The notes under the pieces: model-generated
Databases searched by the model: none
Told to the model about the DNA's origin: nothing
The model's input: only the letters and a program-made list of their open reading frames with translations
Shown here: positions 32,948 through 43,492 of the stretch, in pieces
Numbering within the stretch: position 1 is the first letter of the stretch
How the letters are laid out: each line of letters starts with the position of its first letter
From: Spartobacteria bacterium
GTDB lineage: Bacteria > Verrucomicrobiota > Verrucomicrobiia > Chthoniobacterales > Chthoniobacteraceae
DNA length: 64,000 nucleotides
Direction of reading: 5' to 3'
NCBI GenBank assembly: GCA_021324825.1
Contig: JAJPII010000020.1
Location: 1 to 64,000 of the forward strand
Program-made: the position numbers and the translations under genes

Positions 32948-33325
32948 TCAGTGCTTGAGCCGGTCTTCGATGCAGTTCATCAAACCCTGCGCGCTGACCG
33001 GCTTGGCCACAAAAAACGAGCCGCCGATGACTCCTCCATGCTCGGGCACTTCGTTTTTCCGCACCGTGGCGGTTACGAAGACTACGGGTATGTGCTTCAA
33101 CGCCGGGTCGGATTGAAGCATGGAAAAGACATCTCCGCCGTCGATCTGGGGCATGACGACATCCAGCAGGATGACATCCGGCTGGAACTGGCGCGCGGTT
33201 TGGAGGGCCATCAAGGGATTGCTCTGTTCCCGAACCTCGTATTTCTTCGAGGCTTCCAAAGTCAACTTCACTACCTTTGTAAAACCCGCCTCATCATCCA
33301 CGATCAATACCTTGCGCTTGTTCAT
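32948..33325 (-). CDS. Stand-alone response regulator receiver protein
   Basis: A 125-residue CheY-like receiver with no output domain. KVLIVDDEAG carries the acidic metal-binding pair, VILLDVVMP the phosphoacceptor Asp, VVFVTAT the switch Thr and FVAKPVS the conserved Lys. Such proteins relay phosphate from a histidine kinase to a partner. No kinase lies within the window. The ATG at 33325 is preceded by a plausible Shine-Dalgarno (GAGGGAAGG). Confidence 0.88.
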   Translation of the reverse strand: MNKRKVLIVDDEAGFTKVVKLTLEASKKYEVREQSNPLMALQTARQFQPDVILLDVVMPQIDGGDVFSMLQSDPALKHIPVVFVTATVRKNEVPEHGGVIGGSFFVAKPVSAQGLMNCIEDRLKH

Positions 33326-33391
33326 AGACCTTCCCTCAGTTTCCGAATCTAATCGCACCCAGTGCGCCCAAACAAGATAAATGACGCCTCG

Positions 33392-34449: not shown

Positions 34450-35190
34450 TTAAATAACGTGCCTATCGCGTCCAAGCGAAGGCTGGTTCGTGCGGGCGGG
34501 GTGTTCCTCGAAGGTCATCGGTTTCGGGGAAAGCTCCGGAATGTCAAACACCGGCAGATTGAGAACCGTAAAAAAGACTTCGTTTATTTCGCGATACCGG
34601 GTTTTGGTTATCGCGCCTTCCACATCCGCGAGTTTCAGCGCCCGATCTTTCACTTCCACGGCCATGACAATGGTCCCGTCCTGATTTACACATTCCAAGT
34701 CAGCCGCCTGCCCGGACGCTTCATCGCTCGCATTAATGCGGCCGCGGTTATCCCGTTCGTACAAACCAAAATGAGCGCCTGCCGCCTCAAACAGCGCGCC
34801 AGCCAATGCGAGGGCGCGATCTCCGCCGGATTTTTCACCAAGAAAACTTCGCGCGGCATCAAGTGCGCTCTTAAGACTGACGCGGGGCGGAACAGGATAA
34901 GCAAAACGCAATTGCTGCTGCCGCCGATGGATTTCAAGGATCACTTGCCGCATCACGTTTGCGGTGAAAACAGGCTCGTCGCGCTTCTCCACGGCTTCCA
35001 ATACGTCGATGAGTCCTTCCCATCCCGCGGGATCTCGCTTGGCGGCGTCTCCGCGCGTCATGTATGGGATACGCATCGCGTTGCCCACATAAGGGTCGCC
35101 CGACGTTCCCAGCACATTTTCCTGCCGCGAAATGAATGGGGCTATCACTTTTGAACCAAGGCTCCGCGCATCCCAGGCGCATCCCCGCGA
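34450..35190 (-). pseudogene. Remnant of a SacI-like restriction endonuclease (C-terminal part)
   Basis: The open frame from the GTG at 35148 encodes 232 residues resembling the C-terminal two thirds of SacI-type endonucleases, including the VEVKDR strand of a PD-(D/E)xK-like core and LADVEGAI. The same frame also reads upstream of the GTG as SRGCAWDARSLGSKV, which resembles the SacI segment before that point, until the in-frame stop TGA at 35191-35193. The N-terminus is therefore missing and expression is doubtful. The base composition is lower in GC than the neighbours, consistent with transfer. The family call is from recalled similarity. Confidence 0.55.
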
Positions 35191-35450: not shown

Positions 35451-36575
35451 TTAAGCGTCGGAGAAGAGCGCCAGCGAGACGGTGTAGGCGTGGACGAAGT
35501 TCGTCCCGCCGACCGGGCCGATCTCGCCGTTGCAGAAAAACCCGGCGGCGGGCATCGAGCCAAATTGCCCCGCGAACGCCTCGGCGTCGTGGTTCGGCGC
35601 GTCGAAAAGGCTCAGGCCGCGCCCGGTGCAGGAGAACATCAGCGCGGCGAACGGCCTCCGGGCCTCGCCGCGCAACGCAAGGAGGCGTTCGCGCAAATCC
35701 CGGGCGGCGCTCTGCCGGTCGCGCAACTGGTATTGCAAAGTCTGCCCGACGCGCGGATATGCGGCGATCGTCACCGCGCCGCTCTCCGCATCCGCGCCGA
35801 GGATGTTGCGGATGAGGAAGTCGCCCCGCTTGAAGTCGTCCAGGTATTCGGAGGTGGCGAGGCCCGCGAAAAGGTTCCCTTGCGCGCGGCGTTTTTCTTC
35901 GTCGGAAAGCGATTCGAACGCGGAGGCGAGCACCTCGTAGGCGGGCTTGCCGCCGAGCGCCAGCAGGGTGTTCTTCGCCGCGCCGGTCACGGCGAACGGA
36001 TGCCCTATGGGCGTGCACCCCTGGCTGACGAGCGGACGGATGCGCACCCCGCCCTTGAACCCGAGCGCCACCGAGCCGTCGTCGATCAACTCCCGGTCGC
36101 GAAATACGAAGACGTCGCCGCCGCTGCCCAGGCCTCCCACGGTTGGGATATTCGTATACGCCTTGTTCCACTCGGCCAGCCAGCGTTCCACCGGGAAGTT
36201 GACCGGGTTCGCGAGGAGCATCCAGGCGTCGACGTCCCAGGCTTTCCGGTCGGTTTGCTCGTCGCGAAAAACGAAGGGCGTTACGGTCGTTTCCGGCAGG
36301 TGGAGAAAGAAGATCGAGAATCCCTGCGAATGCTCCGCCTCCTGGCTGGCGCCGATGAGGCCCGAGGCGCTGCAACCCACGACGAGCGGAACGTGGCCGT
36401 GAACCTGAACGACCTCGACAAACTCCGGGATGAACGGACGGAAATCCGCCGAGACAAACGCAAAAGCGCAGGTGACGGCGCCTCCGACTTCCGCGAGGCA
36501 TTCGCGCGCGGCGTTGCCCGCCGACTCCTCGGAATACGGGCCAAGGACGAGACGGGACGCCGCGGAATTTGCCAT
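35451..36575 (-). CDS. FIST-domain sensor protein
   Basis: A 374-residue protein with FIST N and FIST C domains. The N-terminal half has VTCAFAFVSADFRPFIPEFV and VPLVVGCSASGLIG; the FIST C half (about 210-374) has FAALMFSCTGRGLSLFDAPN and AAGFFCNGEIGPVGGTNFVH. FIST domains are predicted sensors of small ligands such as amino acids and occur with histidine kinases and receivers. This copy has no fused output domain. The ATG at 36575 is used. It lies 84 bp downstream of the glycosyltransferase-receiver gene on the same strand. Confidence 0.88.
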   Translation of the reverse strand: MANSAASRLVLGPYSEESAGNAARECLAEVGGAVTCAFAFVSADFRPFIPEFVEVVQVHGHVPLVVGCSASGLIGASQEAEHSQGFSIFFLHLPETTVTPFVFRDEQTDRKAWDVDAWMLLANPVNFPVERWLAEWNKAYTNIPTVGGLGSGGDVFVFRDRELIDDGSVALGFKGGVRIRPLVSQGCTPIGHPFAVTGAAKNTLLALGGKPAYEVLASAFESLSDEEKRRAQGNLFAGLATSEYLDDFKRGDFLIRNILGADAESGAVTIAAYPRVGQTLQYQLRDRQSAARDLRERLLALRGEARRPFAALMFSCTGRGLSLFDAPNHDAEAFAGQFGSMPAAGFFCNGEIGPVGGTNFVHAYTVSLALFSDA

Positions 36576-36659
36576 GGGTGTAATGTAGCTATCCCGCCCC
36601 ATTCCGTAAAGTCGGTGCGGAACGGCGCATACGGGAAGCTATTCAAGGGGCGGCCAAAT

Positions 36660-37760
36660 CTAGGCAGTCCGGATGAGTTCGCTGACGAGGCCGCGCATGC
36701 GCAACGCTTTCTGGATCGTCTGGACGAGCTGCCGCGCATCGAACGGTTTCGTGAGGTAGTCGAAAGCGCCCAGCTTCATGGCGCGCACCGCGGTTGGGAT
36801 TTCATCGTTGCCGGAGACGACCACGATCGGTATATCCGCGTGGCGCCTCTTCATTTGGGCGAGGCGCTCCAGCCCGCTCTTGCCGGGCGCCGCAAGGTCG
36901 AGCAGGACGATCCCGACGCCGTCGTTGAGCTTCGCCAGCGTTTCTTCGTCATTCCCCGCCTCTTCCACGTGGAAGCCGGCTTCTTCAAGATGGCTGCGCA
37001 TCAAGTCGCGTATCCCGGCTTCGTCCTCGGCGACCAATACGGTCTGGCCCTCGCCGGTCCGGTCAACGGGGAACGTTATCGGCGCAATGTTGTCCATAAC
37101 CGGCGCGGAATCCCGCGGCTGCACGCCCATGAAGCCGCGCAGCAAACGCCTGGCCCAGTGTTTGCTCTGCCCGTGAACGCGGGGATGGCGCCGGATGACG
37201 ATCTCCGCGGCACGGAAGCCGTTGATGCCGCCGGGCGAAGGACTCATGCGGTGCATCTGGCCGTAAAGCCGGACGTTCTTGATGACTTCCGCGCGGCAGC
37301 ACTTGAAGCCGCAGCTGTGGTCATGCAACACTTTGTGCCAGGCGTCGTGGCGATTGCTCTTCGAGCCGCTGACGATGTCGTAGCCCTCGTCGAGTTTCTC
37401 CAGGAATCGCCCGATCTCCTTCGGGTCGTCCCGCAAATCGGCGTCCATCGTGAAGACGATGTCGCCGCGCGCCGCCTCGAAGCCCACGGCCAGCGCGTGG
37501 GCCTTGCCGCAGTTGCGGTGAAAGCGTATGGCGCCAACCTTTCCAGGATGCTCTTCGCTCAAGGCCCGGATAACCGCCCAGCTTCCATCGGCGCTGCCGT
37601 CGTCGATGAAAATCGCCTCGAATTGCCGGTTCAGGCCGGTCATTTGTTCGGCGATCCGCTCGAACGTTTCGCGGACGGTTTTTTCCTCGTCCTTGAGAGG
37701 AATGACAAAGCTGATAAGATTTTTGATCAGAAGTGGATTTCCTGGGTGTGCGAACCGCAT
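36660..37760 (-). CDS. GT2 glycosyltransferase fused to response-regulator receiver
   Basis: A 366-residue fusion from the ATG at 37760. Residues 14-210 are a GT2 domain of the dolichol-phosphate-mannose-synthase type: SFVIPLKDEEKTVRETFERI, IFIDDGSADGSW, the DXD-like DAD at 106-108, then HDHSCGFKCCRAEVIKNVRL and HGQSKHWARRLLRGF. About twenty residues usually lying between WHK and HDHNCG are missing at 142-146, and the membrane tail is absent. Residues 239-355 form a complete receiver: AEDEAG (Asp246), phosphoacceptor Asp288 in LLDLAAPGKSG, and Lys338 in LTKPF. The order of the two parts and the lack of any output domain are unusual. Confidence 0.8.
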   Translation of the reverse strand: MRFAHPGNPLLIKNLISFVIPLKDEEKTVRETFERIAEQMTGLNRQFEAIFIDDGSADGSWAVIRALSEEHPGKVGAIRFHRNCGKAHALAVGFEAARGDIVFTMDADLRDDPKEIGRFLEKLDEGYDIVSGSKSNRHDAWHKVLHDHSCGFKCCRAEVIKNVRLYGQMHRMSPSPGGINGFRAAEIVIRRHPRVHGQSKHWARRLLRGFMGVQPRDSAPVMDNIAPITFPVDRTGEGQTVLVAEDEAGIRDLMRSHLEEAGFHVEEAGNDEETLAKLNDGVGIVLLDLAAPGKSGLERLAQMKRRHADIPIVVVSGNDEIPTAVRAMKLGAFDYLTKPFDARQLVQTIQKALRMRGLVSELIRTA

Positions 37761-39774: not shown

Positions 39775-41145
39775 CTATCGCCATTGGCCGATCTGCTGCG
39801 GGAAGAGGCATTCCGCGCAGTCGGAGTTGTCCTTCATGCAAAAGTCTTCGTAGATTTGCATCAAGCCTTGTTGGCGAGCCGCCGTTTTCAGCATTTCCTT
39901 CGCTTGGGGCATCCCGCCGAACAGACGGATCGCGGCGGTTTCCACACGGCGATTCACGGATGCGGCGGCCAGGTTGGCATACCCGCTCCATGCGGCGGGC
40001 TCGGCCAGGATGGCGAGAGGGTAGAAAACATTCGCGAGCATTTCCGTGACCCGGGATTCGCCGACAAGAGCCATCGGCGCGGTCATCCCCTCGGCGGTGA
40101 GGGTGTAATGAAGATCCCAATACTCATCGTGCAACCCGGCAAAGAACGCATGAATCCGCTTCGGATCGAGACTCTCCTTCAATCTCCGAACTTTGCCCCA
40201 ATGCCTCACGATCTGCGCGAGCGCCGCGACTCTGCGTTGCGGATGGTTCGCGGGCCGCACCCCGCCGGTGCGCCAGCGCTCGGGCTTGAGCGCGAGGCGT
40301 TCCCACTTGTCGCGCTCCGGCCACCACCCCTCCCAAATCGCGCGCAGGTAGGAGCGCGTCTCCTGAGGAAACCGGCCCATGCCCGTATGGGGAAGGAAAC
40401 CGCTGACTCCAAAAAGGAGCGAGTCGACGCGCTCTTTCTCCCGCAAGAGGAGGCGCAGGGGAAGCCGTTGCGTGAGCAACGTGAAGGCGAAGGTGTTTCC
40501 CTTGTAGCCGAGTGTAGCGGCAAGCGCCTGGTACAGCGCTTCGTCGGCGCCGTGCGCGTCGGCGGCCCGGGCGATGCGGGCCGCTTTGTTTTGCAAACGG
40601 AATTGGGCCGCCGCGTCCAGGATATCGGCGGCTTTCCCGCCCGGAAGGTCGCGCAAGGGCGCCAGGCATCTGCCTGGCTTGGCCAGGGGCGCGGAACGCG
40701 GCGGTTCCTCGCCGAGTTTCGAGGGGTCGAGCAGAACCTGGAGGACGTTGCGATTCCGCGCGGTCCGCGTGAAGAACGCGGCGGAGCCTTTCTGAAGGAA
40801 GATGTGCAGAATCACGGACTCGTAATCCGGATTCACCGCGTGCCCGTGCCGTTCCCAATCGCGCGCGTCGGGATCCAATTCGACGCTTCCGCGGATGGGC
40901 GCTGCGCCGTTGATGGATACGGCGGCTTCAGCGAAGTCGGGACCCGCTTCGCGGTTCCACACGCCGAACTGGACGATGCGGACCTCCTCGCCGCCGGTTG
41001 CTTGAAAACGCGTTCCGAACTCCCCCGCGAACCAGCTCGCCTGCAACTCGATTTCCGTCCATTTGCGCGAAGAAAAAAAATCCCCCTCGCCGAGCCTGGA
41101 GCGCTCCGGCGGACGCAACGCGGCATAATGAGCGGCGGGCGTCAC
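39775..41145 (-). CDS. DUF2851 family protein
   Basis: A 456-residue cytoplasmic protein matching DUF2851: QFGVWNREAGPDFAEAAVSI, IRGSVELDPDARDWERHGHA and ESVILHIFLQKGS at the N-terminal half. The C-terminus has C-x8-C-x2-C (MKDNSDCAECLFPQQ), possibly a metal site. The GTG start overlaps the upstream TIGR03790 stop (GTGA). Function unknown. Confidence 0.85.
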   Translation of the reverse strand: MTPAAHYAALRPPERSRLGEGDFFSSRKWTEIELQASWFAGEFGTRFQATGGEEVRIVQFGVWNREAGPDFAEAAVSINGAAPIRGSVELDPDARDWERHGHAVNPDYESVILHIFLQKGSAAFFTRTARNRNVLQVLLDPSKLGEEPPRSAPLAKPGRCLAPLRDLPGGKAADILDAAAQFRLQNKAARIARAADAHGADEALYQALAATLGYKGNTFAFTLLTQRLPLRLLLREKERVDSLLFGVSGFLPHTGMGRFPQETRSYLRAIWEGWWPERDKWERLALKPERWRTGGVRPANHPQRRVAALAQIVRHWGKVRRLKESLDPKRIHAFFAGLHDEYWDLHYTLTAEGMTAPMALVGESRVTEMLANVFYPLAILAEPAAWSGYANLAAASVNRRVETAAIRLFGGMPQAKEMLKTAARQQGLMQIYEDFCMKDNSDCAECLFPQQIGQWR

Positions 41146-42716
41146 GGCGGCGTCATCCGCGCGGCGTCGTCGCGGAGGACGCGCAGCGCGGGGGCGTCCG
41201 GGAATTGCGCGGCCTCCTTGCGCACCAGGGCCAGCCCTTCCGCGTCTCTGCCGGCGGCGCGCAGGAGCCGGACTTCATGGATGGCGACGCGCAGGATGTC
41301 GTCACCGTCCTTATAGCACCGCCGGGCGGCGTCGAATGCGGCCAGGCTTGCCGTCAGGTCGCCCGCGTCTTTTTCAAGAAGACCAAGCCCTTCGAAAATA
41401 ACTCCGCTGCGGAGCCTGTTTCCAGCCTGTCGCAACGCGGCTTCACCGGCGGCGCGATCCTTGTAAAACCAGTCGCGCACCCCGTCGCGATAGGCCGCCC
41501 ATTCCTCGTCCGACTTCGGGGCGGCGCCAAAAACGTCCTGGTTTAATTTGAAGGGCCGGTACAATGGGTCGCCGACGAAGGTTGGCATCCAGGAAAGCAC
41601 GGGTTGAGACATGTAACCACTCTCCGCGAAGGTGAACCCGGCCCGAAGGCGTTCGTCAAAAACGTCAAGATGCGGCAGAAACGGAAGATACGGTTCATAG
41701 ACATTCCCCATGGATGCCGCCGCGCCGTGCGCCAGCAGCGGGCCGACCCAGCCGGCTTTGGGGTCGCGAATGGTCGCGGCGCTATAGGAATGGATGTGGC
41801 ATGCGACGGCGCCTTTTGTGAATTGGAAGCTGTCCAGCGTGAAGGGCCCCACGCTGTTCGCGGAATACCAGCCGTAGTACAGCGCGGCGTTTCGCATCGG
41901 GTAATCCCGCGCGAAGAGTGCGGGGCCTTCCTGGACAATGCACGGAACTCCCTGCCGGGTTGCATTTTTCTCAATGCGGCGCATCCATCGATCTCCCAAA
42001 GCGTAGCCGCCGGTGTTGACGCCCCGCTCGTTGATATAGGCAAAACCCCAGAGGCCGGTCTTTTCCGTTTCCACGGAATCCTCGATCATCCGCCGGACGA
42101 TGGCGTCCGAAGGGCCGTCCAGCCGGCAGACAAGCATGACCGCGGGCATGTCGGCGGTAAAGATCGAGGTGAAGGAGCGGTAGTAGGGATTATTCAACGC
42201 GCCGGAAATGACGCGGCTGTAAGCGCCGAGGACCGAAAGCTCGGAATCAACCGACGCCTGGTTGGTGGAAGCGAGGATTGGCGGCCCTTTCGACGAATCG
42301 CCGGGATAATGTTCGGCCTGGCGGATTTTCAACGGCATCCCGCGCATCAGCGCGACGAAACGCACCTTGTTTTGCAACACGCGAACGGGGTTGCCCTCCT
42401 TCAGTTTCCACCAGCCGCGCCCGGCGAAGACGCGACGCAACGGATCGGCGATGGTCGCATCGTATTCGTCGCGGGATATTTCCTCCTCCCGCGAACAATC
42501 CACGCCCACGATGTTGTCCGGCGGGATCCCACGCAAGCCGGCGTAGAAATTCGCGAGCGCCGGCGAAGAGGGGTCGCGCGTGTTGTATACGACGATGGTC
42601 GCCGCGGCGCAGCGGTCAACCGCGCTGCGCGGAAGCCACTCGAACGGCTTTTCCTGCCCGGAGACGGCCGTCGCCAGGCACAGGCTGAACGCCGCGAGGA
42701 CGACGCATCTTTTCAT
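41142..42716 (-). CDS. TIGR03790 family exported protein
   Basis: A 524-residue exported protein with a signal peptide (MKRCVVLAAFSLCLATAVSGQ). Residues about 30-390 match the TIGR03790 family: TIVVYNTRDPSSPALANFYA, LRGIPPDNIVGVDCSREEEIS, MRGMPLKIR and HIHSYSAATIRDP. A short TPR-like region closes the protein (about 440-520). TIGR03790 is found mainly in Verrucomicrobia and Planctomycetes and has no known activity. It overlaps both neighbours by 4 bp. Confidence 0.85.
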   Translation of the reverse strand: MKRCVVLAAFSLCLATAVSGQEKPFEWLPRSAVDRCAAATIVVYNTRDPSSPALANFYAGLRGIPPDNIVGVDCSREEEISRDEYDATIADPLRRVFAGRGWWKLKEGNPVRVLQNKVRFVALMRGMPLKIRQAEHYPGDSSKGPPILASTNQASVDSELSVLGAYSRVISGALNNPYYRSFTSIFTADMPAVMLVCRLDGPSDAIVRRMIEDSVETEKTGLWGFAYINERGVNTGGYALGDRWMRRIEKNATRQGVPCIVQEGPALFARDYPMRNAALYYGWYSANSVGPFTLDSFQFTKGAVACHIHSYSAATIRDPKAGWVGPLLAHGAAASMGNVYEPYLPFLPHLDVFDERLRAGFTFAESGYMSQPVLSWMPTFVGDPLYRPFKLNQDVFGAAPKSDEEWAAYRDGVRDWFYKDRAAGEAALRQAGNRLRSGVIFEGLGLLEKDAGDLTASLAAFDAARRCYKDGDDILRVAIHEVRLLRAAGRDAEGLALVRKEAAQFPDAPALRVLRDDAARMTPP

Positions 42717-43492
42717 GGCTCGATTTTCATTCCATCGTACGCCAGCCGGACGCCCGGCGGCAGCGAAGCCTCCGTCGCGGCATGCGGCAACTCGTGGCAC
42801 ATATGGGTAAACCAGGTCCGCGGCGCCTTCACCCGCGCGGCGATCTCCAGCGCCTCGGCGACGTTCAAGTGCGTGGGGTGAAGCCGATGCCGCAATGCGT
42901 CGATGATCAACACCCGCACGCCGGAGATCGCTTCGATGACTTCGCGCGACACGACTTTGCAATCGCTGAGATAAGCCGCGAGGGGCGCACCGCCCCGGCT
43001 CATGAGGTAACCGTTGACCATCGTCCTGCCGTGCATGACCGGCAGGGGCAGCAACTCGGTTTCCCCAAGCCGGAAAACCCCGGAAACGACGCGGGGCTGC
43101 GGCAGCACGTAGCCGATGATGCGGTTCTCCCCGCTGAAGGCGAATTCAAACACCCTGCGCAGACTCCGCATCGTTTCCCCGGATGCGTAGACGGGAATCT
43201 CCTTGCCGCCCGCGCAAAACGCCCGAAGATCGTCGAAGCCCATGATGTGGTCGGTGTGCGCGTGCGTGTAAACCACGGCGTCGAGAGAGGTGATCTTTTC
43301 GCGGAGACACTGGGCGCGGAAATCGGTTCCCGTGTCGATGACCCACGCGCACTCGGGCGTCTGGACGTGGATGGAAGAGCGGGTGCGGTTGTCGCGGGGA
43401 TCGGGCGAGGCGCAAACCGCGCAGCCGCAACCGATCATCGGCACGCCGTGTGAAGTCCCCGTGCCGAGAAAGGTGATCGTCAATTCCGCCAT
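42713..43492 (-). CDS. MBL-fold phosphodiesterase of the PhnP type
   Basis: A 259-residue zinc hydrolase. The N-terminal MAELTITFLGTGTSHGVPMI is followed by GCGCAVCASPDPRDNR, where the Cys residues form the extra zinc site seen in PhnP and related cyclic-phosphate phosphodiesterases. The catalytic motif is VVYTHAHTDHIMGFDD. Near the C-terminus, TWFTHMCHELPHA supplies further His ligands. PhnP opens cyclic ribose phosphates; the substrate here is unproved. The ATG at 43492 is used. It is divergent from recN, 47 bp away, and starts the operon with TIGR03790 and DUF2851. Confidence 0.82.
   Translation of the reverse strand: MAELTITFLGTGTSHGVPMIGCGCAVCASPDPRDNRTRSSIHVQTPECAWVIDTGTDFRAQCLREKITSLDAVVYTHAHTDHIMGFDDLRAFCAGGKEIPVYASGETMRSLRRVFEFAFSGENRIIGYVLPQPRVVSGVFRLGETELLPLPVMHGRTMVNGYLMSRGGAPLAAYLSDCKVVSREVIEAISGVRVLIIDALRHRLHPTHLNVAEALEIAARVKAPRTWFTHMCHELPHAATEASLPPGVRLAYDGMKIEP

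What the first reader, a model, noticed from the sequence alone, without database searches (positions are those of the whole stretch)
36660..37760. GT2 glycosyltransferase fused to an NtrC-type receiver domain
One uninterrupted 366-codon frame joins a dolichol-phosphate-mannose-synthase-like GT2 domain (14-210) to a complete receiver (239-355) with acceptor Asp288 and Lys338. The GT2 part has lost about 20 residues between WHK and HDHSCG and its membrane tail. This could be phosphorylation-controlled glycosyl transfer, or a dead GT2 scaffold carrying a receiver. I know of no named family with this order.
Basis: partly seen in the sequence, partly recalled or inferred. Interest (0 to 1): 0.7.

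Follow-up and report, generated by a model that had tools for sequence, protein, structure and literature searches.

The report
Sugar-transferase relic carrying a signalling switch
This bacterial gene joins a worn-down membrane sugar-transferase to an intact phosphorylation switch; relatives in related bacteria carry working-looking versions of both halves inside surface-sugar gene clusters, which points to a way for bacteria to switch a lipid-sugar enzyme directly by phosphorylation.

Summary
Confirmed: window 36660-37760 (minus strand) is one 366-aa frame with a GT2 domain and a complete receiver (Asp288, Lys338). It is not a one-off. Eight other single-frame fusions were found: seven in the same bacterial class (very probably Verrucomicrobiota) and one in a contig labelled Cloacimonadota. 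Those read GT2 - two membrane helices - receiver. In seven of the eight a family-4 glycosyltransferase gene follows; one lies behind H-NOX and hybrid-kinase genes, one behind a sigma-54 regulator. The window copy is a derived orphan. It has lost, in frame, the juxtamembrane helix JM1 (17 aa) and the whole two-helix membrane segment, and the metal ligand Gln (DADLQ to DADLR). It breaks 11 of 57 otherwise invariant GT2 positions; complete homologues break 0-3. Its receiver keeps every signature residue. Three family-f5 members show the reverse: intact GT2, degraded receiver. Best reading: a soluble response regulator whose GT2 part no longer makes lipid-linked sugar; slow decay is the main rival. 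The truncated form is known only from this genome. New variant of a known kind (response regulators with enzyme partners); no described family with this order was found.

The parts
36660..37760 (-). GT2-receiver fusion gene, 366 codons
37128..37715 (-). GT2 domain (residues 16-211), ArnC/GtrB/DPMS type, degenerate
   Evidence: Pfam; Foldseek; 11 of 57 invariant positions lost
37431..37445 (-). DADLR motif (residues 106-110); metal-ligand Gln replaced by Arg110
   Evidence: PfDPMS Gln93 in PMC5526996
37320..37331 (-). Junction of the 17-aa in-frame deletion of juxtamembrane helix JM1/IFH1 (between residues 145 and 146)
37104..37130 (-). Junction where the two-helix membrane segment is missing (about residues 211-219)
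37047..37127 (-). Linker (residues 212-238), with a remnant of the post-TM2 linker (APVMDNIAP)
   Evidence: pLDDT below 50 at 212-232
36693..37046 (-). Receiver domain (residues 239-356), NtrC/NtrX-like, all signature residues kept
36897..36899 (-). Predicted phospho-acceptor Asp288
36747..36749 (-). Conserved Lys338
35451..36602 (-). FIST_N-FIST_C protein, next gene downstream (57-bp gap); possible partner, inferred only
   Evidence: conserved in 37 of 57 relatives without the fusion beside it in those checked

Best explanation
The gene is a derived, orphan member of a small family of single-chain proteins: GT2 (polyprenyl-phosphate glycosyltransferase type) - two membrane helices - receiver. 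In the full-length members a histidine kinase would phosphorylate the receiver and so tune sugar transfer onto polyprenyl phosphate, feeding a GT4/LPG_synthase_TM surface-glycan cluster (inferred). In the window copy the membrane-binding helix JM1, both membrane helices and a metal-ligand Gln are gone while the receiver is intact. The protein is therefore most likely a soluble response regulator that no longer makes lipid-linked sugar. It would act by phosphorylation-dependent binding of a partner, or as a phosphate sink, with the GT-A core kept as a docking or nucleotide-binding scaffold. Shown by computation: the family, its architecture, the losses, the intact receiver motifs. Inferred: phosphorylation, loss of catalysis, partner binding.
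For: Family: full-span single-frame fusions in G059, G389, G388, G329 (= JB023), G332, G689, G666 and L043/G378. Their GT2 parts, with unfused f15 paralogues, form one supported clade (98/93), the window sister to the same-order f5 fusions (91/76). Context: a GT4-like gene follows in L201 and L203-L208; LPG_synthase_TM follows in L201, L206, L208; H-NOX plus hybrid kinase precede the G666 copy and a sigma-54 regulator the G689 copy. Window losses: 11 of 57 invariant GT2 positions against 0-3 in complete homologues; Q110R; JM1 and TM1-2 absent; no TM-like stretch left. JM1 residues are essential in GtrB; Gln93 is a metal ligand in PfDPMS. Receiver motifs all kept, modelled at pLDDT about 90. 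An orthologous GT4 partner and H-NOX were not found in the own genome.
Against: No reads, expression data or second strain: the truncated form rests on one metagenome-type assembly. No kinase sits beside the gene. PfDPMS without its TM domain is still active, so TM loss alone does not prove inactivity. A receiver on a dead enzyme can also be decay in progress. Receiver trees are too weak to prove one fusion event (one clade not rejected, p 0.749).
Confidence: 0.57

Rival explanations
1. Decaying gene: the copy lost its operon partners and membrane parts, the GT2 half is drifting, and the intact receiver is only the part that has not yet decayed. No present function.
For: Long GT2 branch (0.88, median 0.32), 11 broken invariant positions, no GT4 partner, absent from other genomes of its bacterial family.
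Against: Two large deletions both in frame; no stop or frameshift in 366 codons; coding-type codon-position GC throughout; receiver motifs complete.
Confidence: 0.25
2. Live soluble glycosyltransferase: losing JM1 and the membrane helices changed the acceptor from a lipid to a soluble molecule, and the receiver controls the activity.
For: DXD aspartates, the A-loop Arg194/Lys200 and the nucleotide half of the fold are kept. PfDPMS works without its TM domain.
Against: Metal-ligand Gln replaced by Arg, plus changes at ten other invariant positions including the acceptor half; weak model of that half compared with an intact homologue.
Confidence: 0.12
3. Assembly or binning artefact: a deletion created during assembly, or two genes joined.
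For: Truncated form known only from this assembly; no reads available.
Against: The same fusion order occurs in eight other genomes; both deletions are in frame and fall on membrane-associated elements; the substitutions in the GT2 part are not explained by misassembly; the gene lies inside a 94.7-kb contig.
Confidence: 0.04

Closest known systems
Polyprenyl-phosphate glycosyltransferases of GT2: ArnC, GtrB, PfDPMS
   Same: GT-A fold, DXD, A-loop Arg/Lys; best sequence and fold matches; the full-length relatives also have two membrane helices
   Different: A receiver at the C-terminus; in the window copy JM1, the membrane helices and the metal-ligand Gln are missing
Archaeal REC-BcsA-like glycosyltransferase response regulators (MTH_548, Methanobacteriaceae; PMC5847659)
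   Same: Receiver fused to a GT2-type enzyme; narrow taxonomic spread
   Different: Receiver(s) come first (REC-BcsA, REC-REC-BcsA) and the enzyme is BcsA-like (PF13641); here the receiver comes last, after an ArnC/DPMS-type enzyme
NosP-NosK-NosR systems (FIST heme sensor, kinase, receiver with degenerate HD-GYP; PMC12570481)
   Same: FIST gene near a receiver joined to a probably inactive enzyme domain
   Different: No kinase beside the window gene; heme binding untested; HD-GYP instead of GT2
NtrC/NtrX-type receivers
   Same: Closest receiver sequences and folds
   Different: No AAA+ or DNA-binding part

Membership tests
Polyprenyl-phosphate glycosyltransferase (GtrB/ArnC/DPMS) | GT-A core with DXD motif | tested here: met
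   PF00535; Foldseek ArnC/GtrB/PfDPMS; D106-A-D108
Polyprenyl-phosphate glycosyltransferase (GtrB/ArnC/DPMS) | Gln of DADLQ (metal ligand, PfDPMS Gln93) | tested here: not met
   Arg110 in the window, Gln in all complete homologues aligned (PMC5526996)
Polyprenyl-phosphate glycosyltransferase (GtrB/ArnC/DPMS) | Juxtamembrane helix JM1/IFH1 | tested here: not met
   17 residues absent; mutation of JM1 residues abolishes GtrB activity (PMC4728340)
Polyprenyl-phosphate glycosyltransferase (GtrB/ArnC/DPMS) | Transmembrane helices (not needed for PfDPMS catalysis) | tested here: not met
   maximum 19-residue hydropathy 1.06; relatives have two stretches at 2.0-2.9
Polyprenyl-phosphate glycosyltransferase (GtrB/ArnC/DPMS) | Sugar transfer to polyprenyl phosphate | not testable with these tools
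   needs an enzyme assay
Response regulator receiver (PF00072) | Acid pair, phospho-acceptor Asp, Thr/Ser, Lys | tested here: met
   E245/D246, D288, S317, K338
Response regulator receiver (PF00072) | Phosphorylation by a histidine kinase | not testable with these tools
   no kinase gene among the neighbours checked
GT2-2TM-REC fusion family (described here) | GT2 of the fused clade plus C-terminal receiver in one frame | tested here: met
GT2-2TM-REC fusion family (described here) | Two membrane helices between the domains | tested here: not met
   only a post-TM2 linker remnant
GT2-2TM-REC fusion family (described here) | GT4 gene directly downstream | tested here: not met
   FIST gene instead; best GT4 hit in own genome is 35% and partial
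Archaeal REC-BcsA response regulators | N-terminal receiver(s) before a PF13641 enzyme | tested here: not met
   receiver is C-terminal; PF13641 passes its cut-off but is far weaker than PF00535 (PMC5847659)
NosP (FIST) signalling, for the downstream gene | FIST domain | tested here: met
   PF08495 and PF10442
NosP (FIST) signalling, for the downstream gene | Heme/NO binding and an adjacent kinase | tested here: inconclusive
   no adjacent kinase in the genes checked; heme binding not testable

The most novel reading that the evidence does not exclude
A family of membrane polyprenyl-phosphate glycosyltransferases is gated directly by aspartyl phosphorylation, in some species downstream of H-NOX/kinase gas sensing. 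The family has come apart both ways: one lineage keeps the enzyme and loses the switch, and the window lineage sheds the membrane and catalytic parts and keeps the switch as a soluble regulator.
Probability: 0.4. Interest if true: 0.72.

Novelty: new variant of a known kind. Interest (0 to 1): 0.5.

Why it matters
Supply of polyprenyl-phosphate sugars is a control point for envelope glycans, and its control is usually thought of as transcriptional or through c-di-GMP (general knowledge). A receiver built into the enzyme chain would be direct post-translational control of lipid-linked sugar synthesis, and the intact members make it directly testable. The reciprocal losses (degraded receiver on live GT2; intact receiver on apparently dead GT2) are natural experiments on how enzyme-linked response regulators come apart.

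Tried and rejected
Frame-join artefact: rejected, because the same order recurs in eight other genomes. Conserved synteny of the window locus: FIST is conserved, but in seven relatives it is next to neither GT2-REC nor PEPCK, so the locus does not date the gene's arrival. Receiver phylogeny: short and unresolved; one origin neither shown nor rejected. H-NOX in the own genome: none. Plasmid carriage: no record covers 80% of the fusion. Rfam: nothing in the window. Named family for the fusion: none in NCBIfam or Pfam. The papers searched gave only the archaeal REC-BcsA type. The first own-genome search used the plus strand by mistake and found only itself. The full-length JB023 fusion was not folded, because the structure tool lists only window sequences and loci from certain other tools as allowed.

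Full report
WHAT IS THERE. The frame is on the minus strand: ATG at 37760, stop at 36660-36662, 366 codons, uninterrupted. Pfam places Glycos_transf_2 at 18-137 (5.8e-27) and Response_reg at 242-351 (8.2e-26). The protein is single-copy in its 3.3-Mb, 94.6%-complete genome, inside a 94.7-kb contig. GC by codon position is of the coding type in the GT2 part, the linker and the receiver alike. Downstream on the same strand, 57 bp away, is a FIST_N-FIST_C protein; upstream and divergent is GTP-type PEP carboxykinase.

IT IS A FAMILY. Searches with the window protein and then with its relatives found eight more single-frame fusions. G059, G389 and G388 are in family f5 of the same order. G329, G332, G689 and G666 are in family f15 of the same class. 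L043/G378 is a copy cut by a contig end in a MAG labelled Cloacimonadota. G329 gives the same contig and coordinates as G382, which was reached from a record named Verrucomicrobiota bacterium JB023, so the window genome is very probably Verrucomicrobiota (inference). Among 40 genomes of G378's phylum no other fusion appeared at E <= 1e-60. No plasmid record covered 80% of the fusion. All eight relatives read GT2 - TM - TM - linker - receiver.

CONTEXT OF THE FULL-LENGTH MEMBERS. A GT4-like glycosyltransferase gene of one kind (N-terminus of the type VLGSTYPRN...PW.RE) follows directly in L201, L203, L204, L205, L206, L207 and L208; Pfam confirms GT4 for L207 and L208. LPG_synthase_TM follows in L201, L206 and L208, and HlyD-type or outer-membrane efflux genes lie in several clusters. 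In G666 the gene sits directly behind an H-NOX gene and a hybrid histidine kinase on the same strand. In G689 it sits behind a sigma-54 receiver regulator, with an Hpt gene next to that. JB023 has, at another locus, a sigma-54 regulator, H-NOX, hybrid kinase and an outer-membrane efflux gene, followed by a degenerate GT2. Signalling genes beside some members make phosphorylation of the fused receiver plausible; it is not shown.

WHAT THE WINDOW COPY LOST. Against its homologues it lacks 17 residues between WHKVL and HDH and the whole membrane segment after RGFM; similarity resumes in the post-TM2 linker (APVMDNIAP against LPIVDRIEP). No membrane-like stretch remains (maximum 19-residue hydropathy 1.06; relatives 2.3-2.9). 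The 17 residues are the juxtamembrane helix JM1/IFH1. In GtrB, mutation of conserved juxtamembrane residues abolishes activity, and the whole region is very sensitive (PMC4728340). In PfDPMS this helix carries Ser135 of the lipid-phosphate site (PMC5526996). The Gln of DADLQ, a metal ligand in PfDPMS, is Arg110 here. Leaving out one sequence at a time, the window breaks 11 of 57 otherwise invariant GT2 positions; complete homologues break 0-3. Loss of the membrane helices alone would not prove inactivity, since PfDPMS without them is active. The loss of JM1 together with the Gln change is the stronger argument.

HOW FAR THE DELETED FORM REACHES. The order-wide search (213 genomes) used a query that recovers the window copy, and no other truncated fusion appeared. 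The class- and phylum-wide searches used full-length queries with thresholds at which the window copy itself was not listed, so truncated copies elsewhere could have been missed.

WHAT IT KEPT. The receiver has Glu245/Asp246, Asp288, Ser317 and Lys338. AlphaFold2 models it at pLDDT about 90, with NtrX/NtrC1-type receivers among its closest folds. The nucleotide half of the GT2 (10-130) is modelled mostly above 90. The acceptor half is weak (block means 54, 66, 63, 72; residues 138-145 below 50). An intact homologue (L031) modelled from 14 GT2 rows of nearly the same set has the JM1 helix (125-142) and higher values there. The two alignments differ in depth, so this is support, not proof.

EVOLUTION. 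In a careful GT2 tree the fused copies and the unfused f15 paralogues make one supported clade (98/93). The window is sister to the f5 fusions of its own order (91/76) on a long branch (0.88, median 0.32). One clade of all fused GT2s is not rejected (p 0.175). Receiver trees are unresolved; one clade of fused receivers is not rejected (p 0.749). A single fusion is plausible but not proven. The f5 members show the opposite decay: GT2 invariants intact, receiver degraded (acid pair Glu-Arg in two, phospho-Asp replaced by Asn in G388; no Response_reg hit at 1e-3 in any of the three).

MECHANISM. Full-length members: phosphorylation of the receiver, tethered behind TM2 on the presumed cytosolic side, would alter the GT2 domain or its oligomer and so the rate of polyprenyl-phosphate sugar formation (inferred). 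Window copy: the same switch on a soluble, probably inactive GT-A core. The likeliest use is phosphorylation-dependent binding or a phosphate sink, perhaps with the FIST protein. FIST is widespread in the order (37 of 57 genomes) while the fusion next to it is not, so that partnership is a guess. NosP-NosK-NosR, where a FIST sensor works with a receiver joined to a degenerate enzyme domain (PMC12570481), is an analogy only: no kinase is adjacent here.

KNOWN AND NEW. Response regulators with enzyme outputs are an established kind. The nearest described case is REC-BcsA in Methanobacteriaceae, with the receiver first and another GT2 branch (PMC5847659). I found no description of an ArnC/DPMS-type enzyme with a C-terminal receiver in the paper library, nor a named family in Pfam or NCBIfam; the library lacks most subscription journals. 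Verdict: a new variant of a known kind, with the window copy a derived, probably non-catalytic member.

Noticed in passing
L050:5971-6951 (JB023): A degenerate GT2 protein (326 aa, DAD changed to TPQ) lies in the same stretch as sigma-54 regulator, H-NOX, hybrid kinase and outer-membrane efflux genes, close upstream of a normal-looking GT2 on the same contig: another apparent pseudo-GT2 near signalling genes.
   Followed up: partly
L017, L148, L149 (G059, G389, G388): Fused receivers in family f5 are degraded while their GT2 domains keep all invariant residues: the mirror image of the window copy.
   Followed up: yes
L205:8846-9391 and L050:1304-1840: H-NOX (HNOB) genes beside hybrid kinases in GT2 loci of this class; possible gas-sensing control of envelope glycan synthesis.
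   Followed up: partly
window 34450-35148 (-): Short ORF matching only the end of the SacI restriction endonuclease profile (27.9 bits, above Pfam's cut-off).
   Followed up: no
window 32948-33358 (-): Stand-alone receiver protein about 3.3 kb downstream on the same strand, with no kinase among the neighbours checked.
   Followed up: no
window 41142-42962 (-): 606-aa ORF with no Pfam match; looks like a secreted protein.
   Followed up: no
L043/L208 (JACFNL010000099.1): A MAG labelled Cloacimonadota carries the same GT2-REC/GT4/LPG_synthase_TM/HlyD cluster as the window's class, absent from 39 other genomes of its phylum at the threshold used: gene transfer or mis-binning.
   Followed up: partly
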